Below are positions 34,539 to 46,775 of a DNA stretch of 56,780 bases, one piece after another. This DNA is from Candidatus Nanopelagicales bacterium. Lineage in GTDB: Bacteria; Actinomycetota; Actinomycetes; S36-B12; CAIYMF01. Made by a program: the position numbers and the translations under genes. How positions within the stretch are numbered: position 1 is the stretch's first letter; each line of letters starts with the position of its first letter. Location: the NCBI GenBank assembly GCA_017882705.1, contig JADGOZ010000003.1:1-56780 (forward strand). Reading direction: 5' to 3'. Below the pieces are notes generated by a model. The model was not told the DNA's origin and ran no database searches. It saw only the letters and a program-made list of their open reading frames with translations.

Positions 34539-34910
34539 ATGACCGAGGACCTGACGGACGTGCTCGACACCACCCGTCTGGAGACGCTCGTCGAGGAGAT
34601 CGGTGACCGCGACCTCGTGCGTCAGGCGGTGCAGGCGTTCCTCGACGAGGTCCCGATGCGGCTGCACGCGATCCGCACCGCCGTCACCGCGCGCGACCAC
34701 GAGGAGGTCAGCTCCTCCGCGCACGCGCTCGGCTCCCCCGCCGCGATGCTCGGCGCTCTCGCCGTCCGCACCGAGACCAAGCGGCTGCAGGCAGCCGCGG
34801 GCGACCAGGCCAGCGAGGAGTACCCCGGCCTCGTCGAGGCGGTCGAGACCGCGACGGCCCGCACCGAGCAGGCCATGCGCGACTACCTGGGTTCGCCCGC
34901 CTCCGTCTGA
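34539..34910 (+). CDS. histidine phosphotransfer (HPt) protein
   Basis: A 123-residue all-helical HPt domain. The phospho-accepting His is H62 in SSSAHALGSPAAMLGA, the classic HxxxG context. ATG 34539 is chosen after GGAAGGAAT; the GTG at 34521 would add six residues. It is transcribed towards the sensor operon, and its last 28 bases overlap the 3' end of the GAF-HATPase-REC gene on the other strand. It likely relays phosphate between the REC domains of the hybrids and the response regulator. Confidence 0.9.
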   Translation: MTEDLTDVLDTTRLETLVEEIGDRDLVRQAVQAFLDEVPMRLHAIRTAVTARDHEEVSSSAHALGSPAAMLGALAVRTETKRLQAAAGDQASEEYPGLVEAVETATARTEQAMRDYLGSPASV

Positions 34911-36622
34911 TCCCGGTCGAGCCACTTGCGCGCCATCTGCGAGAGCTCCTCGATCCCGAACGGCTTGCTGAGGTAGTCGTCCATGCCGGCGTCCCGGCAC
35001 AGGTCGCGCTCGGCCTGCCCCACGTGGGCCGTCAGCGCCACGATGGGCACGTCAGCCGGCGTCGCTCCGTCGGTCGAGCGTCGCCAGCGGCGGGTCGCCT
35101 CGCGGCCGTCGATGTCGGGCATCTGGACATCCATGAAGACCACGCCGTACGACGTCGACTGCATCGACGCGAGCGCGGCAGCACCGCCGTCGACCACGTC
35201 GGTGGCCAACCCGATGCGGTCCAGCATGGCCGCGGCGAGCTTGCGGTTGATGGTGTTGTCGTCGACGAGCAGGACGCGCGTGCTGCGCGTGGTCCACGAC
35301 GCGGGACCGCCGGCACGCGCGGCGACGCGCAGCCTCGCCACCGTGCCGCCAGCGGCGGCGGCCGAGACCGTGAGCGCACCGCCGAGCGCGCCCGCGATGC
35401 GGGCCGCCTGCGCGAGCCCGGTGCCGCCCGCGGGCCGCTCACCGTTCTTGTCCCAGGTGTAGCCGACCCCCTGGTCGCGGACCTCGACCACCAGGACGTC
35501 CTCGCCCGGTGTCGCCGAGACCTCGACCGCGTCGGACCCGGAGTGCAGCACGGCGTTGTCGACCAGCGCGTCGACGGCCCGCTCGAGCAGGCCGACCTGG
35601 AGCATCGCGGCGTAGCCCTCCGGACCCGTGGTGGGCTGGACGGCGAGCACCGGGACCGGGCTGCCCGCGTGCCGGGCGACCGTCCCCTGCACGATCTGGT
35701 CGGGCGAGATCAGCGTCCGCTCGCCGATCGTCCGGCGACCCGCGCCGTCGGCGACCGACACGAGCCTGGTGACGATGTCCTCGAGCGAGCCGACCGCCTC
35801 GGCGTCGGCCTCGACCTGCGCACGTCCTTCGCGCAGGTGGTGCAGCGCCGACTCGGCCTCGTGCACGAGATACCCGAGGTAGGACGCGCGCGCGTCGTCG
35901 GCGGACCGCGACGAGCGTTTGAGCGCCTGGGTCTCCTCCGTGCGCTGGGCGAGCAGGTCCTCGAGGCGACGTCGCTCCGCCTCCTGGTGCTCACGCATCC
36001 GCTCCCACTCGAAGGCACGGCCGAGCTGGCTGCCGATCGACGGGGCGAGCTGGAGCAGGCGCTCGTCCGCGCCGCGGGTGTGCGGGTGGACGAACTCGAT
36101 GACGGCGGCCACCTCGACCCCGGTCACCACGGGGAAGGCCCAGGATGCACCCTGCGGGATCATCGCCTGGCGCGGATAGTTCGCGGCCATCGTGAGGTCG
36201 GGCAGCCAGAGCGCGAGGTGCGACGCCGCCACCTCGCCGGGCAGCCCGCGCGGCGGCACGAACCGCTCCTCCACGGTCGCCGACATCACCAGGTCGAGGA
36301 AGTCGAGCTGAGCGGGGTCGGCGTCCCAGATGTCGGAGGTGACGAACGCACCGTCCTCGTCGGGCACGAGGACGTGCGACACCGCGAAGTCGCAGTGCCG
36401 ACGCAGCGCCTTCGCCGCAGCGCCCAGCGCCGAGAGCGCGTCGTCGGCGTCGTTGACGATGACGGCGATCGCCGCGAACAGCTCGACCTCGCGGGAGCGC
36501 CCGTAGGACCGGCGCAGCTGCTTCTCGGCGATGAGCTCCGCCTCGAGACGGGCGCTGCGCTCGCGGGCCGCACGACGCTCGAGGCGCGCGATGACGTCGC
36601 GCTCCGACGGGGGCACGGTCAT
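34883..36622 (-). CDS. GAF-HATPase-REC hybrid sensor protein
   Basis: A 579-residue cytoplasmic protein: N-terminal coiled coil (8-45), GAF domain (about 46-205), coiled coil (205-245), a degenerate dimerisation helix with H254 (YLVHEAESALHH), HATPase (N-box DALVDNAVLH at 351-360, G1 RDQGVGY 382-388, G2 GGTGLAQAARIAG 399-411) and a C-terminal REC domain with D454, D455, D498, T531 and K553, all intact. The H-box lacks the usual SHExRTP, so autokinase activity is uncertain. ATG 36622 overlaps the H-NOX stop by four bases, so translation is coupled to the haem sensor. Confidence 0.87.
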   Translation of the reverse strand: MTVPPSERDVIARLERRAARERSARLEAELIAEKQLRRSYGRSREVELFAAIAVIVNDADDALSALGAAAKALRRHCDFAVSHVLVPDEDGAFVTSDIWDADPAQLDFLDLVMSATVEERFVPPRGLPGEVAASHLALWLPDLTMAANYPRQAMIPQGASWAFPVVTGVEVAAVIEFVHPHTRGADERLLQLAPSIGSQLGRAFEWERMREHQEAERRRLEDLLAQRTEETQALKRSSRSADDARASYLGYLVHEAESALHHLREGRAQVEADAEAVGSLEDIVTRLVSVADGAGRRTIGERTLISPDQIVQGTVARHAGSPVPVLAVQPTTGPEGYAAMLQVGLLERAVDALVDNAVLHSGSDAVEVSATPGEDVLVVEVRDQGVGYTWDKNGERPAGGTGLAQAARIAGALGGALTVSAAAAGGTVARLRVAARAGGPASWTTRSTRVLLVDDNTINRKLAAAMLDRIGLATDVVDGGAAALASMQSTSYGVVFMDVQMPDIDGREATRRWRRSTDGATPADVPIVALTAHVGQAERDLCRDAGMDDYLSKPFGIEELSQMARKWLDRDQTEAGEPR

Positions 36623-37155
36623 GAGACCACCACCCGCAGGACGCAGTGGTCGTCGCCGCGGTGCAGGCACAGCGGCTGGCTGACGTCGACGCGCTGGCCG
36701 TAGTGCCGCCCGACGCCGAGGACGAGTCCCTCGGCGAGGTCGCAGCGACCGCGCTCGGAGCGGTAGGTCATCTCGAGCACGTCCGGCTCCGGTGTGGCGA
36801 AGTCGAACTCCGGGACGAGGGCGCCCGGATAGAGCCGGCGCACCTCCGGATGGATGATGTCGTTGAGGGTCAGCAGGAACGAGCGCACGTCGTTGTGCGG
36901 GGTGAAGAACTCCGGGTAGCGCTCGGCGAGGATCGCGAGCCCCTCGTGCCCGACGTGCCGCACGACCGACGACGGGTCGGTGCCCACCTGACGGGCGACG
37001 GTCGTCGCGATGTCGACGAGGTCCGAGTCCGGGTAGCTGCCGAGCGAGGTGTAGGCCCCCGAGACACCCGCCTCGTCGATGACGTCGTCCCAGGCGTCGT
37101 CGCCGCGCTCGGCGCGCACGACGCTCTCGACCAGGTTGTAGATGACGCCCTTCAC
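36619..37155 (-). CDS. H-NOX haem nitric oxide/oxygen-binding sensor
   Basis: A 178-residue stand-alone H-NOX (HNOB) protein, which holds haem b and senses NO or O2. Canonical residues fall at canonical positions: proximal haem ligand H102 (NDIIHPEV), P115, and the propionate-binding Y131-S133-R135 motif (YRSER). Residue 140, the distal Tyr of O2-binding members, is Leu, which points to an NO-selective sensor. It sits between a kinase with the HNOBA partner domain and a second hybrid. In other bacteria H-NOX controls adjacent histidine kinases or cyclic-di-GMP enzymes. Confidence 0.93.
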   Translation of the reverse strand: MKGVIYNLVESVVRAERGDDAWDDVIDEAGVSGAYTSLGSYPDSDLVDIATTVARQVGTDPSSVVRHVGHEGLAILAERYPEFFTPHNDVRSFLLTLNDIIHPEVRRLYPGALVPEFDFATPEPDVLEMTYRSERGRCDLAEGLVLGVGRHYGQRVDVSQPLCLHRGDDHCVLRVVVS

Positions 37156-37189
37156 CGGCTCACGCGCCTCATCCGTGCAGCCTCCGCCG

Positions 37190-39610
37190 TCATCGCGGGG
37201 CCCGGTCCAGCATCTCGTCCACCACGCGACGCAGGTCCGCGAGGTCGACCGGCTTGCTCAGGTGCCCGTCCATGCCGCTGGCGCGGCAGCGCTCGAGCAC
37301 GTCGTCGTCGTCGCCCACGACCAGGCCGATCACCGGTACGCCGGAGATCCGGGGGTCGTCGGAGGAGCGGAGGCGGATGCAGGTGTCGGGTCCGTCGAGG
37401 TCCGGCATGTCCACGTCGAGCAGCAGGAGCCCGATCGACCGACGCTGCTCGAGCACGGCGAGGGCCTCCTCCCCCGACTCCACGGCCACGGCCGCGACGC
37501 CGAACCGGGTGAGCTGGCGCACCACGAGGTTGCGGCTGGCCTCGCTGTCGTCGACGACCATGACGGTGGCGATGTCGACCGTGGGCTCGTCGTCGACGTC
37601 GTCCGCCGCGAGCGACGCCGACTCCGAGATCTCGGGAAGGCGCAGCTGGAACCGGAAGGTCGAGCCCTCGCCGACGGTGCTCGACACGTGGATGTGGCCG
37701 CCCATGAGCGACACCAGGCGGTCGGAGATCGCGAGCCCGAGGCCGGTGCCCTCGTTGCCGGTCCGCGCCTGGACGAACGGGTCGAAGATGGCCGAGAGCC
37801 GGTCGGCGGGGATGCCCTGGCCGGTGTCGCGCACCTCGAAGTCGACGACGGCCGCGCCGCCGCGGTGCTCGGCGACCGACGCCAGCAGCGTCACCGATCC
37901 CGACGCCGTGAACTTCACGGCGTTGCCGGCGAGGTTGACGAGCACCTGGCGCAGCCGGGCGGGGTCGCCGGTGACGAGCGCGGGCATCGCGGGGTCGACG
38001 ACGAGCCGCAGCTCGAGGCCCTTCGCCCTCGCCTGGCTGACCAGCAGGTCCACGACCCCCTGCAGCACGTCCGACGGCGAGTAGGGCTCCACGCTGAGGT
38101 CGATGCGTCCGGACTCGACGCGCTGCAGGTCGAGGATGTCGTTGATGATCGAGACGAGCTGGGTCGCCGAGGAGTTGACCACGTGGACCAGCTCGCGCTG
38201 CTCGGCGTCGAGCCCGGTCGTGCGCAGCAGGTCGAGCGTGGCGAGGACGCCGTGCATCGGCGTACGGATCTCGTGGCTCATCGAGGCGAGGAACTGCGTC
38301 TTGGCGTCGGACGCCGCGATCGCCTCGTCGCGGGCGCGGGCGAGCGCGTCCTGGTACTGCACGCGGTCGGTCGCGTCGCGGAACATCCAGAGCGCACCGA
38401 GGTCCTGTCCCGCTGCGACGATGGGCTGGAAGTCGAACTCGAGCACGCGACCGTCGGACAGCGTCAGCGACTGGTTCACCGCGGGCCAGCGACGGTGCAG
38501 CAGGTCCTCGGTGCGTCGGAGGAACGCCACCGGGTCGTCGGTGTGCGAGACCAGCTGCGACACCGCCGCGGTGGCGGGGAGCCCGACGAGGTCCTTCGGT
38601 TGCGCGGCCGAGCGGAAGAGGCCGAAGAGGTAGTCGTTGGCCATGACGATGTGCCGCTGCGCGTCCTCGACGAGCACGCCGGACTGCATGTGAGCGAGGA
38701 GCGTGGTCAGACGCGACATGGTGTCGTGGAGGTCGAGCTCGGCCTCCTTCGCGGTCGTGGTGTCGAGCATGAAGCCGACCCGGCGGGCCGTGCCCTCCTC
38801 CTCGTCCTTCACCACGCTGTCGACGGCACGCACCCAGAAGACGCGACCGTCGGCGGCGAGGACCCGGAACTCCTCGTCGAACGACGAGACGTCGCGCTCC
38901 GCGTGCAGGTGCGCGGACCAGACGCGGTCGCGGTCGTCGGGGTGCACGACGGTGTCGAAGAAGAAGCCCGGCTCGTCCATCCAGCGCTGCACGGGGAAGC
39001 CCAGCCAGGGCTCGACGCGCGGCGAGATGAAGTCGGCGACCGGCATCGACCCGAGGTTGTCGATGTACATCACGAGCGGCTGGAGCTCGACCAGGCTGCG
39101 GTACTGCGCCTCGGCGCGGGTGAGCATGCGGTTCGTCCAGCGCAGCTCGCTCGCGGAGCGCTGCAGCTCGGAGTTGAGGGTCCGCAGGTCCTCGAGGCTG
39201 CGCTCCTGGCCGCGGCGCAGCAGCAGGAGGTCCGGGGTCTGGTCGATCGGCGAGAAGTCCGCGGCGGACAGCCCGAGCCGGTCGAGCTCCTCGGACGAGG
39301 CGACGACCGGCGTGCCGACGAGCATCACGCCGGACGGCTCCGAGACGTCGACGACCTGGAACCGCACGCGCGGACCGGCCGGAGCCAGCTTCAGCAGGAG
39401 CATCGAGTCGCGGTGCCGTCGTACCGACTCGATGGTGGCGAGCCCGGTGGGCCGGACGACCTCGAAGACGTCGAGGAGCGGGCGGCCGGTGAAGTCCTCG
39501 CACAGGCGGCGCCAGGACGGCCCGGTGCGCGTGACGACGAGCGACTCGTCGCACAGCACCCCGAAGGGTGCCACGCGGTCGAGGTCGTCGTCCTCGATCC
39601 GGACACCCAT
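37190..39610 (-). CDS. HNOBA-PAS-PAS hybrid histidine kinase
   Basis: An 806-residue cytoplasmic hybrid kinase. Order: HNOBA domain (about 12-135; PFGVLCDESL, FQVVDVSEPSGVMLVGTPVVASSEELDRLGLSAADF), short coiled coil (136-170), two PAS domains (about 170-290 and 300-420), HisKA with H446 (SMSHEIRTP), HATPase (N-box NLAGNAVKFT 559-568; DTGQGI 595-600; GTGLGLAISD) and REC with D687-D688, D732 and K786. The REC lacks the conserved Ser/Thr (IGLVVG at 761-766). HNOBA is the domain that joins H-NOX to the cyclase in soluble guanylate cyclase. No membrane segments. Gap to the H-NOX gene is 34 nt. Confidence 0.92.
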   Translation of the reverse strand: MGVRIEDDDLDRVAPFGVLCDESLVVTRTGPSWRRLCEDFTGRPLLDVFEVVRPTGLATIESVRRHRDSMLLLKLAPAGPRVRFQVVDVSEPSGVMLVGTPVVASSEELDRLGLSAADFSPIDQTPDLLLLRRGQERSLEDLRTLNSELQRSASELRWTNRMLTRAEAQYRSLVELQPLVMYIDNLGSMPVADFISPRVEPWLGFPVQRWMDEPGFFFDTVVHPDDRDRVWSAHLHAERDVSSFDEEFRVLAADGRVFWVRAVDSVVKDEEEGTARRVGFMLDTTTAKEAELDLHDTMSRLTTLLAHMQSGVLVEDAQRHIVMANDYLFGLFRSAAQPKDLVGLPATAAVSQLVSHTDDPVAFLRRTEDLLHRRWPAVNQSLTLSDGRVLEFDFQPIVAAGQDLGALWMFRDATDRVQYQDALARARDEAIAASDAKTQFLASMSHEIRTPMHGVLATLDLLRTTGLDAEQRELVHVVNSSATQLVSIINDILDLQRVESGRIDLSVEPYSPSDVLQGVVDLLVSQARAKGLELRLVVDPAMPALVTGDPARLRQVLVNLAGNAVKFTASGSVTLLASVAEHRGGAAVVDFEVRDTGQGIPADRLSAIFDPFVQARTGNEGTGLGLAISDRLVSLMGGHIHVSSTVGEGSTFRFQLRLPEISESASLAADDVDDEPTVDIATVMVVDDSEASRNLVVRQLTRFGVAAVAVESGEEALAVLEQRRSIGLLLLDVDMPDLDGPDTCIRLRSSDDPRISGVPVIGLVVGDDDDVLERCRASGMDGHLSKPVDLADLRRVVDEMLDRAPR

Positions 39611-39636
39611 GGCGTCGCTCGTGACTCCTCTGCGGA

Positions 39637-40317
39637 TCAGGCCGGCTCGAAGCGGTAGCCGACACCCCGCAGCGTACGGATGTGACGCGGCTGCGACGCG
39701 GACTCGCCGAGCTTCTTGCGCAGCTTGCCCATGTGGACCTCGATGACGTGGTCGTCACCGAACCACTCGCCCCACACCTGCACGAGCAGCTGCTCGCGGG
39801 TGAAGGTACGCCGAGGGCTGCCGGACAGCAGGTCGAGGATGTCGAACTCGATCTTGGTGAGCTCGACGTTCTCGCCGTCGACCTTCACCTCGCGGGCCAC
39901 CGGGTCGACGATCAGGCGGCCGAAGTCACGCGACTCCTGCTGCGACCCGACACGCGGACGGCGGCGCATGGCGCGCACGCGCGCCGCGAGCTCGCGCGGC
40001 GAGAACGGCTTGGTGACGTAGTCGTCGGCACCCACGGTGAGCCCGACGATCTTGTCGACCTCGTCGTCGCGGGCGGTGACCATCACGACGTAGGCGTCGC
40101 TGAAGCCGCGCAGGTCGCGGCACACCTCGACGCCGTCGCGGTCGGGCAGGGACAGGTCGAGGATGACCAGCTCCGGCTTGTTGGCGCGGGCCCATTCCAG
40201 GCCCTGGGTGCCCCGAGGGGTCGCCACGACGGAGTAGCCCTCCTTCTCGAGCAGACCGCGCACGAGGAGGGTGATCTCCGGGGAGTCCTCGATGACGAGA
40301 GCCTGTGCTCGCTCCAT
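39637..40317 (-). CDS. OmpR/PhoB-family response regulator
   Basis: A 226-residue regulator: receiver domain with E10-D11, phospho-acceptor D54 (VILDLSLPD), T81 and K103, then a winged-helix DNA-binding domain (about 130-226; LTKIEFDILDLL, VWGEWFGDDHVIEVHMGKLRKKL, IRTLRGVGYRFE). I prefer ATG 40317, giving a normal distance to the acidic pocket; ATG 40332 and GTG 40323 are alternatives. It is the first gene of the minus-strand sensor operon, 26 nt before the HNOBA kinase, and is the probable output of the relay. Confidence 0.92.
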   Translation of the reverse strand: MERAQALVIEDSPEITLLVRGLLEKEGYSVVATPRGTQGLEWARANKPELVILDLSLPDRDGVEVCRDLRGFSDAYVVMVTARDDEVDKIVGLTVGADDYVTKPFSPRELAARVRAMRRRPRVGSQQESRDFGRLIVDPVAREVKVDGENVELTKIEFDILDLLSGSPRRTFTREQLLVQVWGEWFGDDHVIEVHMGKLRKKLGESASQPRHIRTLRGVGYRFEPA

Positions 40318-40653
40318 GGCCACGGTGGACATCCTTTCCAGACCGATTGGGGTAGTTCTTCCCTCACTCACTGTGACATCCCATCGGCGCGGATGCTGAG
40401 CAGGCTTGAGGATTTCCTGAGCAGAGTCGCCGAGGCGATGTTCCGTCGGGTCCGAGGACACCAGCCGAGACTCTCGGGAGCCTCTCCCCGGACTCCACGC
40501 TCGAGCCCGATCTTCTCCGGCGCATCAGCGGCTCGTCACCCCTGTCGTCCGGAAGATCACACGGCCGGACCCGCCGGTCGCGCCGCGCCGCGCCGTCCGG
40601 GTCGGTAGCGTCGAGCCCTGTCAGCTCCGGTACGACGTCAGGACGCGAGGCCC
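40318..40653. other. intergenic region between divergent response-regulator and CoA-transferase genes
   Basis: About 336 bases with no convincing gene; in-frame extension of the response regulator to 40461 is possible but shows no family similarity. It holds GGGTAG-TT-CTTCCC at 40350-40363 in front of the regulator, an inverted pair CCGGAC (40565-40570)/GTCCGG (40595-40600), and TAGCGT (40606-40611) as a likely -10 box for the CoA-transferase gene with a leader of about 36 nt. Confidence 0.6.
40350..40363. promoter_or_regulatory. imperfect palindrome upstream of the H-NOX/response-regulator operon
   Basis: GGGTAG-TT-CTTCCC has 6-bp half-sites with one mismatch and lies 18-33 bases before the possible starts of the regulator gene. 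It is a candidate operator, possibly for the regulator itself. Confidence 0.3.
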
Positions 40654-43287: not shown

Positions 43288-43338
43288 CGATGAAGGCGGA
43301 GTTTGTAGCTCTCTATGTGATGCAGGCGTCCTTCATCG
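43288..43338. repeat. dyad with an AT-rich core between convergent genes
   Basis: CGATGAAGG (43288-43296) and CCTTCATCG (43330-43338) bracket a core of 33 nt that is much richer in A/T than its surroundings (for example GTTTGTAGCTCTCTATGTGA). It lies after the aldo/keto reductase stop and before the end of the NifX-like gene. Confidence 0.5.
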
Positions 43339-43417
43339 CCAACGGTCGTCAGGTGGGTCGGTCGGTGTCGAGGCCGAGCGAGCGGCGCTTGGCCATGCCG
43401 GAGATGGGTCAGGACCG

Positions 43418-43756
43418 TCAGCCGCCGGTGACGTCGAGCGCGGCGAGGACGCTCGCGCGGGCGTCGCCGGCCGCGCCGAGGACGACCGGCAGCTTCATCG
43501 AGCCGAGGGTTCGGACCATCCCGTCGCCCATGTGCTCGGCCACGACGAGGTCGACGGCGTTGTCCCGGAGGAAGCGCACGACGCGCGCGTGGTGGGAGCC
43601 CTCGGTCCCTTCGTCGTGCGCCACGTCCCACCGCACCTCGTGGACCTGCCAGCCGGTGATCGCGCCGTCGGTCACCGTGGCGAGGGCGATCGCCGGAGCG
43701 CGTCCCCAGCCGTGGGCGACGTGGTCGTCGGCGTCGACGGGGATGGCGATGATCAC
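43418..43756 (-). CDS. NifX/NifB C-terminal-like (dinitrogenase Fe-Mo cofactor family) protein
   Basis: A 112-residue protein starting with GTG 43756 after CGGAGGACACC. The opening IIAIPVDADDHVAHGWGRAPAIALATV and the segment HHARVVRFLRDNAVDLVVAEHMGDGMVRTLGSM match the Nitro_FeMo-Co domain, an RNase-H-like fold binding FeMo cofactor intermediates in nitrogen fixers. No nif genes are nearby; stand-alone members occur in many non-diazotrophs with unknown roles. Confidence 0.82.
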   Translation of the reverse strand: MIIAIPVDADDHVAHGWGRAPAIALATVTDGAITGWQVHEVRWDVAHDEGTEGSHHARVVRFLRDNAVDLVVAEHMGDGMVRTLGSMKLPVVLGAAGDARASVLAALDVTGG

Positions 43757-43847
43757 GGTGTCCTCCGGGAGCAGATGTGCGGTGCTCCCCCGACTATCCT
43801 CGACCCGACCCGCCAGAGTCGAACCGGACCCGCCAGAAGGACGCCGC

Positions 43848-46775
43848 ATGACGCCCGACTCCCGCCCCGACGCGCTCGAGGTCTACCCGCGCCCCGGCAT
43901 CGGCCCGGACGGGGCTGCCGAGCTGGCCCGCGAGGTGTTCGGCGTCGACGGCCCGGTGCGCGAGCTCGGCAGCCACCAGGACCGCAACTTCCGCGTGGAC
44001 GGACCCACGGGGCGCCACGTCCTCAAGGTGGCCAACCGATCCTGGGGCCGGAGCGCGATCGAGGCGCAGAACGCGGCGCTGCTGCACATCGCCGAGCGCG
44101 ACACGTCGTTCCACGCCCCGGTGCCCGTCGCGGCGCTCGACAGCGCTCTGGTGAGCGGGACGACCGACGGCGACGACCTGCTGCCGCTGCGCCTGCTCAC
44201 CTACGTCGAGGGCGAGCCGCTCTCCGACGTGGCCTACCTCGCACCGGCGGTCGTCGCCGACCTCGGCTCGCTCGCCGCGCGCGCCAGTGCCGCGCTCGCC
44301 GACTTCGACCACCCCGGACTCGATCGCGTCGTGCAGTGGGACCTGCGCCGGGCGGGCGAGGTGCTCGCCGCGCTCCTTCCCTCGATCTCGGACCCGGAGC
44401 GACGCGCCCACGTCGCCGACGTGGCGTCGGCCGCCGGCGAGCGGCTCGAGCGCGTCGCGGACCGGTTGCGCATCCAGGCGATCCACGGCGACGTCACGGA
44501 CGACAACGTCGTGGGCCACCGCGACGACGCAGGTCGGGTACGGCCCGACGGGATCATCGACTTCGGCGACCTCGCGCGCAGCTGGCTCGTCGCCGACCTC
44601 GCCGTCACGTGCGCCTCGGTGCTGCGCCACCACCCCGACGACCCCTTCCGCGTCCTCCCGGCCGTGCGGGCCTTCCACGCGGTCGCCCCGCTCGACGACG
44701 CCGATCTCGAGGCGCTGTGGCCGCTCGTCGTCCTGCGCGGCGCGGTCCTCGTGGCGAGCGGCGAGCACCAGGCGATGCTCGACCCCGACAACGACTCGGC
44801 CACCGGGCCGCTCGAGTCGGAGTGGCGCATCTTCCACACCGCGCAGTCGGTGCCCGTCGACCTCGCCGAGGCCACGATCCGCGCGGCGCTCGGGCTCGAC
44901 GCGCCCGTGCGGATGCGCCCGGCGCTCGCGGCGGTCCGCGAGGGCGGGCGGCTCTTCCCGGCCGTCGAGGCGATCACGGTCGTCGACCTCTCTGTGACGG
45001 GCGAGTCGTTGCACTCCGGACGCTTCCTCGCGGCGTCCGCCGAGCGCGACGCGCTGCACGAGGCTGCGACGTACGGCGCCTCCGTCACGCGTCACGCCGA
45101 GGCCCGGCTCACCCGCACGTCGCTCGACTCCGCCGTCGAGCCGGAGACGTTCGCACTCGGGGTCGACCTCGTGCTCCCCGTGGGAACCGAGGCCGTCGCG
45201 CCGTGGGACGTCGAGGTGACCGATGTCGACGGCTCCCTCGTCCGCGTCCGCTCCACGACCGCCGGCCTCGCGCTCCGCGGGCTCCGGCCGTCGGTCTCGG
45301 CCGGTGACCGCGTGCCCGCCGGGAGCGCGCTCGGCGTCGTCGGCGGTGGCGAGGTGCACGTGCGGCTCTGCGTGGACCCCTGGCTCGACGCCCCCGACTT
45401 CGCCACGGCCTCGACCGCCGCGGGCTGGTCCGTCCTGTGCCCGGACCCGTCGCCGCTGCTGGGCCTCGACGTCAGCGTCCCCCGCACCGACGCGGCCGAC
45501 CTGCTCGCCCGGCGCGACGACGTGCTCGCGCGGGTGCAGGAGCACTACTACGCCGAGCCGATGCGCATCGAGCGCGGCTGGCGCCACCACCTGCTCGACA
45601 CCGACGGCCGGGCCTACGTCGACATGGTCAACAACGTCGCCGCGGTCGGCCACGGCCACCCCCGTCTCGCCGACGCCGTCGACCGCCAGATGCGCCTGCT
45701 CAACACCAACAGCAGGTTCCACTACGCCGCCATCGCGGAGTTCTCCGAGCGCCTGGCCTCGCTCGCGCCCGAGGGACTCGACACCGTCTTCCTCGTCAAC
45801 AGCGGGTCGGAGGCCGTCGACCTCGCGCTGCGCATCGCCCGGACGGCGACGGGGCGCCCGGACGTCGTCGCCGTGCGTGAGGCCTACCACGGCTGGACGA
45901 TGCTCTCCGACGCGGTGACGACGTCGCTCTACGACAACCCCACGGCGCTGGACGACCGCCCGGACTGGGTGCACCTCGCCTCGGCGCCCAACAGCTACCG
46001 CGGCCGGTTCCGAGGACCCGCGTCGGGCGCGGACTACGCGCTCGAGGTGCGCGAGCTCGTCGAGCGCATCGCCGCCGACGGCCGTCCGCCCGCGGCGTTC
46101 ATCTGCGAGCCGGTGTTCGGCAACGCCGGGGGCGTCCTGCTTCCCCGGGGCTACCTCGCCGCGGTCTACGACACCGTCCGTGAGTTCGGCGGGCTGTGCG
46201 TGGCGGACGAGGTGCAGGTCGGCTACGGGCGCCTCGGCCACCACTGGTGGGCCTTCGAGATGCACGGCGTCACGCCCGACATCATCACGGTCGCCAAGGC
46301 GATGGGCAACGGCCAGCCGCTCGGGGCCGTCATCACGACGCGCGCGATCGCCGACGCGTTCGCCGCGCAGGGCTCCTTCTTCTCCTCGGCGGGCGGGAGC
46401 CCGGTGTCGTGCGTCGTCGGCTCCACGGTGCTCGACATCCTCGAGGACGAGGGCCTGCAGGCGAACGCGGCCGCGGTCGGCGACCGGATCATCGAGCGCT
46501 GCGCCGAGCTGCAGGAGCGCTACCCGATCGTCGGCGCGGTGCACGGCATGGGGCTCTACCTCGGCGTCGAGCTCGTGCGCGACCGGGAGACCCTCGACCC
46601 CGCCACCGAGGAGTGCTACGCCGTCTGCGACCGCCTGCGCGAGCTGGGTGTCGTCGTGCAGCCCACGGGCGAGCGCGCCAACGTGCTCAAGCTCAAGCCG
46701 CCGATGTGCCTCACCCCGGAGAGCGCGGACTTCGTCATGGAGTGCCTCGAGACGGTGCTGCGCGACGGCTGGTGA
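43848..46775 (+). CDS. fusion of APH kinase, M23-like domain and class III aminotransferase (phospho-lyase type)
   Basis: A 975-residue three-part protein. Residues 25-330: APH/choline-kinase-like domain with HGDVTDDN (213-220) and DFGD (238-241). Residues about 420-560: a small beta domain resembling the M23/lipoyl-like barrel (LPVGTEAVAPWDVEV...VSAGDRVPAGSALGVVG) without obvious zinc ligands. Residues about 560-975: class III PLP enzyme with ADEVQVGYGRLG and Schiff-base K817 (TVAKAMGNG). Human HYKK is an APH hydroxylysine kinase, and PHYKPL is a class III phospho-lyase. Their fusion here suggests kinase plus phospho-lyase acting in sequence on hydroxylysine, ethanolamine or a similar amino alcohol. 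Start ATG 43848. Confidence 0.85.
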   Translation: MTPDSRPDALEVYPRPGIGPDGAAELAREVFGVDGPVRELGSHQDRNFRVDGPTGRHVLKVANRSWGRSAIEAQNAALLHIAERDTSFHAPVPVAALDSALVSGTTDGDDLLPLRLLTYVEGEPLSDVAYLAPAVVADLGSLAARASAALADFDHPGLDRVVQWDLRRAGEVLAALLPSISDPERRAHVADVASAAGERLERVADRLRIQAIHGDVTDDNVVGHRDDAGRVRPDGIIDFGDLARSWLVADLAVTCASVLRHHPDDPFRVLPAVRAFHAVAPLDDADLEALWPLVVLRGAVLVASGEHQAMLDPDNDSATGPLESEWRIFHTAQSVPVDLAEATIRAALGLDAPVRMRPALAAVREGGRLFPAVEAITVVDLSVTGESLHSGRFLAASAERDALHEAATYGASVTRHAEARLTRTSLDSAVEPETFALGVDLVLPVGTEAVAPWDVEVTDVDGSLVRVRSTTAGLALRGLRPSVSAGDRVPAGSALGVVGGGEVHVRLCVDPWLDAPDFATASTAAGWSVLCPDPSPLLGLDVSVPRTDAADLLARRDDVLARVQEHYYAEPMRIERGWRHHLLDTDGRAYVDMVNNVAAVGHGHPRLADAVDRQMRLLNTNSRFHYAAIAEFSERLASLAPEGLDTVFLVNSGSEAVDLALRIARTATGRPDVVAVREAYHGWTMLSDAVTTSLYDNPTALDDRPDWVHLASAPNSYRGRFRGPASGADYALEVRELVERIAADGRPPAAFICEPVFGNAGGVLLPRGYLAAVYDTVREFGGLCVADEVQVGYGRLGHHWWAFEMHGVTPDIITVAKAMGNGQPLGAVITTRAIADAFAAQGSFFSSAGGSPVSCVVGSTVLDILEDEGLQANAAAVGDRIIERCAELQERYPIVGAVHGMGLYLGVELVRDRETLDPATEECYAVCDRLRELGVVVQPTGERANVLKLKPPMCLTPESADFVMECLETVLRDGW

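What the first reader, a model, noticed from the sequence alone, without database searches (positions are those of the whole stretch)
34539..40363. NO-sensing phosphorelay built from H-NOX, an HNOBA hybrid kinase, a second hybrid, an HPt and an OmpR regulator
Five signalling genes form one locus. The four minus-strand genes are spaced 26, 34 and -4 nt. The kinase carries an N-terminal HNOBA domain, the one that couples H-NOX to the cyclase in animal guanylate cyclases, while the H-NOX itself is a separate protein. This looks like a split guanylate-cyclase-type sensor rewired to a multi-step phosphorelay (kinase, REC, HPt, regulator). H-NOX signalling is well described in proteobacteria but little studied in actinobacteria, and I know no described pathway with this composition.
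Basis: partly seen in the sequence, partly recalled or inferred. Interest (0 to 1): 0.85.

Follow-up and report, generated by a model that had tools for sequence, protein, structure and literature searches.

The report
Half-dismantled double nitric-oxide sensor phosphorelay
An actinobacterium carries a probable nitric-oxide-responsive gene switch that looks like the remnant of a two-sensor version still complete in close relatives, and the different sensor pieces lost by different relatives offer a natural test of how such sensors plug into bacterial signalling.

Summary
HNOBA and H-NOX are both supported by profiles.

The pairing is probably not the one proposed. The window's H-NOX is Shewanella-type and overlaps the second hybrid (HK2). 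HK2's coil-GAF start lies directly downstream of H-NOX in 26 of 64 loci found with this H-NOX, and HNOBA occurs in 1 of the 64. The Nostoc/guanylate-cyclase-type H-NOX that precedes the HNOBA-kinase in 6 of 8 HNOBA-bearing genomes of the genus is missing here. Four of 11 genomes keep OmpR, H-NOX-A, HNOBA-kinase, H-NOX-B, GAF-hybrid and a convergent HPt. The window lost H-NOX-A; one genome lost H-NOX-B; one lost both and the HNOBA domain but kept the relay.

Best reading: NO acts through H-NOX-B on HK2; the HNOBA-kinase feeds phosphate through a receiver and HPt to OmpR. HNOBA-histidine kinases (Nostoc, 2p04) and H-NOX-to-HPt relays (Vibrio) are known. Two H-NOX classes on one actinobacterial relay is a new variant. 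No biochemistry was possible; ligand, sign and target genes are inferred or unknown.

The parts
34539..34910 (+). HPt protein, 123 aa, phospho-acceptor H62 in the motif HALGSP
   Evidence: PF01627 2.7e-10; motif invariant in 9 of 9 aligned relatives
34883..36622 (-). HK2, 579 aa: coil-GAF, H-box H254, ATPase-like domain, receiver D498
   Evidence: Pfam; residues; conservation in 8 genomes
35918..36622 (-). Coil-GAF domain of HK2, the usual neighbour domain of this H-NOX class
   Evidence: AlphaFold pLDDT 95, Foldseek GAF-fold matches, directly downstream of H-NOX in 26 of 64 loci
36619..37155 (-). H-NOX-B, 178 aa, Shewanella type; H102, Y131/S133/R135, Cys138/163/171; GTG start
   Evidence: PF07700 1.5e-34; best solved structure 2kii 9e-27; residues
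37190..39610 (-). HK1, 806 aa: HNOBA-coil-PAS-PAS-HisKA(H446)-HATPase-REC(D732)
   Evidence: Pfam, residues
39056..39610 (-). HNOBA domain plus signalling coil of HK1
   Evidence: PF07701 4.1e-14; profile to 2p04 3.1e-18 and sGC beta-1 2.4e-17
39611..39636 (-). 26-nt junction where relatives carry the H-NOX-A gene; no remnant seen
39637..40317 (-). OmpR-type response regulator, 226 aa, D54
   Evidence: Pfam; 84-94% identical in 9 other genomes of the genus

Best explanation
The locus is the remnant of a dual-H-NOX phosphorelay. In the ancestor of the genus two sensor modules fed one output: [H-NOX-A + HNOBA-PAS-PAS-kinase-REC (HK1)], of Nostoc/sGC type, and [H-NOX-B + coil-GAF-DHp-CA-REC (HK2)], with Shewanella-type H-NOX. 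Both fed one HPt and one OmpR-type regulator. In the window H-NOX-A is gone. NO on the heme of H-NOX-B should act first on HK2 through its coil-GAF domain. HK1 is the reliably competent kinase; phosphate flows H446 -> D732 and/or D498 -> H62 -> D54, with HK2 as shared receiver and probably NO-controlled phosphatase. Shown: gene content, domains, residues, partner association, loss series. Inferred: heme and NO binding, protein contacts, order and sign of phosphotransfer. Unknown: regulated genes.
For: Full six-gene locus in G004, G005, G006, G008; H-NOX-A missing in G000 and G002; H-NOX-B missing in G010; both H-NOX and HNOBA missing in G003, which keeps HK1 body, HK2, HPt and OmpR. H-NOX-A is Alr2278/sGC type, the window's H-NOX Shewanella type. 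HK2's coil-GAF is directly downstream of H-NOX in 26 of 64 loci, 25 of 63 without G002's own contig; HNOBA in 1 of 64. HK1 H-box and ATPase boxes kept in 9 of 9; HK2 H-box His and receiver Asp in 8 of 8; HK2 ATPase boxes lost in G004 and G008; HK1 receiver Asp lost in G010. HPt present in 9 of 11 genomes, absent in exactly the two without HK1/HK2. G035, of another family, has OmpR, an HPt with the same motif, and H-NOX together.
Against: No binding or phosphotransfer data. The 64 loci were found with the window's H-NOX, so the sample favours its class; 38 of 64 do not show the coil-GAF directly downstream. HNOBA in the window shows no decay without H-NOX-A, so it may work with H-NOX-B after all. 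The coil-GAF of HK2 is kept in G003 and G010, which lack H-NOX-B, so it has some role without it. The window's HK2 still has ATPase boxes. OmpR persists alone in G007, so it may have other inputs.
Confidence: 0.55

Rival explanations
1. One reading: the window's H-NOX docks on the HNOBA domain of HK1 as a split sGC-like sensor. In a wider form, after loss of H-NOX-A the remaining H-NOX-B serves both HK1 and HK2.
For: HNOBA remains constrained in G000 and G002 without H-NOX-A: dN/dS 0.22 against 0.23 (PAS) and 0.26 (kinase core), terminal-branch ratios 0.73 and 0.83 inside the 0.41-3.03 range of genomes with H-NOX-A. Among genomes that keep HK1, HNOBA is missing only where no H-NOX remains (G003, one case).
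Against: The window's H-NOX is of the class that accompanies coil-GAF proteins, not HNOBA; H-NOX-A, where found, precedes an HNOBA protein.
Confidence: 0.25
2. HK1 is now blind to NO: HNOBA only dimerises or stiffens the kinase, and the PAS domains sense something else; NO enters by HK2 alone or not at all.
For: G003 keeps the relay with neither H-NOX nor HNOBA, so the relay can run on other inputs. HNOBA mediates dimerisation in sGC (PMC2828450, passages).
Against: HNOBA is lost together with the H-NOX genes in G003, which suggests an H-NOX-linked role (one case).
Confidence: 0.15
3. The missing H-NOX-A is an assembly fault of the window.
For: G000 is a 194-contig assembly, 91% complete.
Against: The junction is inside the contig, between two intact genes; G002, a separate assembly, has the same order with a different 13-nt junction; one H-NOX match only in G000.
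Confidence: 0.05

Closest known systems
Nostoc H-NOX Alr2278 and the HNOBA/H-NOXA histidine kinase of N. punctiforme (PDB 2p04/2p08)
   Same: HNOBA domain at the start of a histidine kinase; relatives' H-NOX-A is closest to Alr2278
   Different: The window lacks that H-NOX class; HK1 is a hybrid tied to a second hybrid, an HPt and OmpR. That the Nostoc genes are neighbours is recalled (Iyer et al. 2003, not held)
Vibrio H-NOX/HqsK to LuxU to LuxO
   Same: H-NOX beside a hybrid kinase, His-Asp-His transfer to a separate HPt, transcriptional output (PMC6759604, passages)
   Different: Two hybrid kinases, HNOBA, OmpR-type output, HPt without the usual Lys
H-NOX-partnered coil-GAF proteins, some with GGDEF-EAL (named loci L053, L066)
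   Same: Same coil-GAF domain directly after H-NOX
   Different: Effector is DHp-CA-receiver rather than GGDEF-EAL
Saccharophagus degradans dual H-NOX system
   Same: Two H-NOX proteins in one organism (title in a reference list)
   Different: There, as I recall, both act on one kinase and are unlinked; in this genus two classes lie in one locus
Animal soluble guanylate cyclase
   Same: HNOBA followed by a signalling coil; relatives' H-NOX-A matches beta-1 at 2.5e-22
   Different: No cyclase; H-NOX is a separate gene; the window's own H-NOX is of another class

Membership tests
H-NOX (HNOB) sensor | HNOB domain | tested here: met
   PF07700 1.5e-34, cut-off passed
H-NOX (HNOB) sensor | Proximal His and YxSxR heme motif (motif recalled) | tested here: met
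   H102, Y131, S133, R135; aligned to 2kii
H-NOX (HNOB) sensor | Binds heme and NO | not testable with these tools
   needs protein
HNOBA kinase of Nostoc/sGC type | HNOBA domain above curated cut-off | tested here: met
   PF07701 53 bits against 23.4; 2p04 3.1e-18 by profile
HNOBA kinase of Nostoc/sGC type | PAS-like fold of HNOBA | tested here: inconclusive
   model from 2 sequences, pLDDT 51
HNOBA kinase of Nostoc/sGC type | H-NOX of the same class fused or directly upstream | tested here: not met
   absent in window and G002; present in 6 other genomes of the genus
Shewanella/Vibrio-type H-NOX-associated hybrid kinase relay | Shewanella-type H-NOX directly beside a hybrid kinase | tested here: met
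   2kii 9e-27; 4-nt overlap with HK2
Shewanella/Vibrio-type H-NOX-associated hybrid kinase relay | Receiver, HPt and output regulator available | tested here: met
Shewanella/Vibrio-type H-NOX-associated hybrid kinase relay | NO-H-NOX changes kinase or phosphatase activity; His-Asp-His-Asp transfer | not testable with these tools
   needs assay
Soluble guanylate cyclase | Cyclase domain | tested here: not met
   none in the five proteins

The most novel reading that the evidence does not exclude
Two H-NOX classes, one sGC-like and one Shewanella-like, were wired into a single phosphorelay in one actinobacterial genus. HK2 acts as an NO-gated receiver/phosphatase hub rather than a kinase, and after loss of the sGC-type H-NOX the Shewanella-type one took over the HNOBA domain (partner switch). 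HNOBA would then be a general H-NOX docking module, kept only while some H-NOX remains.
Probability: 0.2. Interest if true: 0.75.

Novelty: new variant of a known kind. Interest (0 to 1): 0.58.

Why it matters
The genus offers complete, A-only, B-only and H-NOX-free versions of one relay, including a clean removal of HNOBA together with both H-NOX genes. Whether HNOBA is a docking or relay surface for H-NOX, a question that also concerns guanylate cyclase, could thus be tested with natural orthologues. It would also extend H-NOX phosphorelays to actinobacteria; a review knew of no report of putative NO-sensing H-NOX in Gram-positives (PMC8738867, section 10).

Tried and rejected
A strict DNA pattern for the HPt motif matched 4 of 166 genomes of the order and missed genomes that have the HPt; I relied on the profile search instead. 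Upstream regions of the regulator and of HPt showed no convincing shared operator. Whether H-NOX-A was lost once or twice could not be settled: the relay tree puts G009, which has H-NOX-A, with G002/G003 at weak support, and AU tests reject none of three topologies (protein p 0.19, 0.89, 0.10; nucleotide 0.12, 0.90, 0.12; the program warns of too few replicates). dN/dS and branch ratios rest on 8-9 sequences, and the branch ratios on one fixed topology. G009 could not be scored for H-NOX-B: its contigs break there. HNOBA surveys: 9 of 60 relatives; 8 of 394 of the class at E 0.001, 7 over the cut-off; 6 of 396 of the phylum at E 0.001, 1 over the cut-off, the window itself, the other five matching only profile positions 163-216. 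H-NOX: 18 of 60 relatives, 10 of 296 of the class. No profile was run on the flanking genes; 'acetyl-CoA hydrolase-like', 'copC' and 'copD' are names by eye. Iyer et al. 2003 is not held. NCBIfam gave no equivalog above its cut-off among the rows shown for the five proteins.
Full report
OBSERVATION. The window is contig C90 of an unnamed assembly (G000, 194 contigs, 91% complete). G002, of the same genus, has a 39,177-base contig C72; a contig of that length with the same genes is named in genome contigs as 'Candidatus Nanopelagicales' (L080), so the window is probably from that order of Actinomycetota. Pfam confirms HPt, two hybrids, H-NOX (1.5e-34), HNOBA (4.1e-14) and an OmpR-type regulator. 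Gaps and all five named residues are right. Two corrections: the regulator starts at 40317 or 40332, and HPt is convergent with the second hybrid and overlaps its end.

WHICH H-NOX IS THIS. Against solved structures the window's H-NOX is closest to Shewanella-type H-NOX (2kii, 9e-27; the organism name is recalled), with sGC beta-1 at 6e-6 at best. In four other genomes of the genus (G004, G005, G006, G008) the locus reads OmpR, H-NOX-A, HNOBA-kinase (HK1), H-NOX-B, GAF-hybrid (HK2), then convergent HPt. H-NOX-B is the window's gene (49-65% identity). H-NOX-A is another class: Alr2278 at 3.4e-40 and sGC beta-1 at 2.5e-22 (a second one). A and B share 20-30% identity. H-NOX-A precedes an HNOBA protein in the 9 genomes where I found it: 6 of the genus, G019, G161, and G043, where it lies at contig edges. 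In the window and G002 its place is a 26- or 13-nt junction, and G000 has one H-NOX match in all.

WHO IS THE PARTNER OF THE WINDOW'S H-NOX. HK2 starts 4 nt inside H-NOX-B. Its N-terminus is a coil plus a GAF domain (AlphaFold pLDDT 95; Foldseek's best matches are GAF-fold proteins). A profile of that domain finds it directly downstream of H-NOX in 26 of 64 named loci fetched with the window's H-NOX (25 of 63 without G002's contig), in Proteobacteria, Acidobacteria, Actinomycetota and others. In two proteobacterial partners scanned with Pfam (L053, L066) the domain is joined to GGDEF-EAL. HNOBA occurs in 1 of the 64, G002's contig, and H-NOX-A type in none. The sample was drawn with an H-NOX of the B class, so it cannot speak for the A class, and 38 of 64 do not show the coil-GAF directly downstream. 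Still, the usual neighbour of this H-NOX is an HK2-like coil-GAF, and I found no other case beside HNOBA outside this genus.

A NATURAL LOSS SERIES. The 11 genomes that the tool gives for this genus were examined. Full set: G004, G005, G006, G008. H-NOX-A missing: G000 (window) and G002; in G002 H-NOX-B lies in two frames with one break just before the proximal His, possibly an assembly error. H-NOX-B missing, A kept: G010. Both H-NOX and the HNOBA domain missing, HK1 now starting at the end of the coil before the first PAS, with HK2, HPt and OmpR kept: G003. OmpR alone, between the same flanking genes: G007. None: G001 (its best OmpR match is 41% identical). G009 has OmpR, H-NOX-A and HK1 on one short contig and HPt with part of HK2 on others, so H-NOX-B could not be scored. 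Both H-NOX genes are most simply ancestral in the genus. Whether A was lost once or twice is open.

WHAT STAYS AND WHAT GOES. HK1 keeps its H-box and ATPase boxes in 9 of 9 genomes that have it. HK2 keeps its H-box His and receiver Asp in 8 of 8, but in the sister genomes G004 and G008 the N, G1 and G2 boxes are gone. Its catalytic part changes faster (G000-G002 dN/dS 0.56) than its GAF (0.22) and receiver (0.23). HK2-like proteins beside H-NOX in G053 and G027, of other families of the order, also keep His and Asp and show no ATPase boxes by eye. The HK1 receiver Asp is lost in G010 (1 of 9). The route intact in all 8 genomes with a complete relay is therefore HK1 His -> HK2 receiver -> HPt -> OmpR. 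This makes HK2 look like an H-NOX-gated receiver and perhaps phosphatase. In the window its own ATPase boxes are still present (N356, D383), so kinase activity is not excluded.

HPT AND REGULATOR. The HPt motif HALGSP is invariant in 9 of 9 aligned sequences; of 24 HPt motifs picked by a simple expression in the other loci (one of them G002's own), 17 have Lys where this one has Gly. This HPt is in 9 of 11 genomes of the genus and absent in exactly the two that lack HK1 and HK2. G035, of another family, carries an OmpR (58-61% identical by domain) divergent from an HPt with the same motif and followed by an H-NOX. This supports HPt -> OmpR, though OmpR persists alone in G007.

DOES HNOBA STILL MATTER IN THE WINDOW. 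There is no sign of decay: dN/dS G000-G002 is 0.22 for HNOBA against 0.23 for PAS and 0.26 for the kinase core, and terminal-branch ratios of 0.73 and 0.83 lie within the range of genomes that keep H-NOX-A (0.41-3.03). Among genomes that keep HK1, HNOBA is missing only where no H-NOX is left (G003, one case). Likewise the coil-GAF of HK2 is kept in G003 and G010 without H-NOX-B.

MECHANISM. NO (inferred; heme-motif residues H102 and Y131/S133/R135 are present) would bind H-NOX-B and alter HK2 through the coil-GAF. In Vibrio, NO-bound H-NOX inhibits the hybrid kinase and phosphate moves His-Asp-His to an HPt (PMC6759604, passages). By analogy NO would lower phospho-OmpR here; the sign is a guess and the target genes are unknown.

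KNOWN AND NEW. HNOBA on a histidine kinase is known from Nostoc (2p04; PMC2828450, passages). H-NOX-to-HPt relays are known from Vibrio. A dual H-NOX system is known from Saccharophagus (title only; content recalled). In the listings of nine paper searches and the passages read I saw no described pathway with two H-NOX classes on one relay and no actinobacterial H-NOX pathway; the library lacks most subscription journals.

Noticed in passing
L088-L104, L107, L110, L112, L113 (named loci, mostly Acidimicrobiales MAGs; some cut by contig ends): A different H-NOX layout: a kinase-receiver-HPt hybrid, then H-NOX, then a protein of about 300 aa matching the kinase-core profile.
   Followed up: no
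L085:6125-9537: Mycolicibacterium sp. MAG: a 959-aa kinase-receiver-HPt frame overlaps the start of an H-NOX gene.
   Followed up: no
L118:8283-10091 -, L120:6471-8267 +: H-NOX neighbours in other families of the order that keep H-box His and receiver Asp but show no ATPase boxes, possible phosphatase/receiver adaptors.
   Followed up: partly
L115:4635-5330 (G007): The regulator alone, 85% identical, between the same flanking genes, with the whole sensor block missing.
   Followed up: partly
L134 (G035 contig C259): OmpR and HPt divergent, then H-NOX, in another family of the order, with the same HPt motif.
   Followed up: yes
L166, L167 (G009): Two contigs with nearly the same HPt end, so G009 may mix two strains.
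   Followed up: no
window 43290-46775 +: One 1161-aa frame that looks, by eye, like a phosphotransferase-like part joined to an aminotransferase-like part; no profile run.
   Followed up: no
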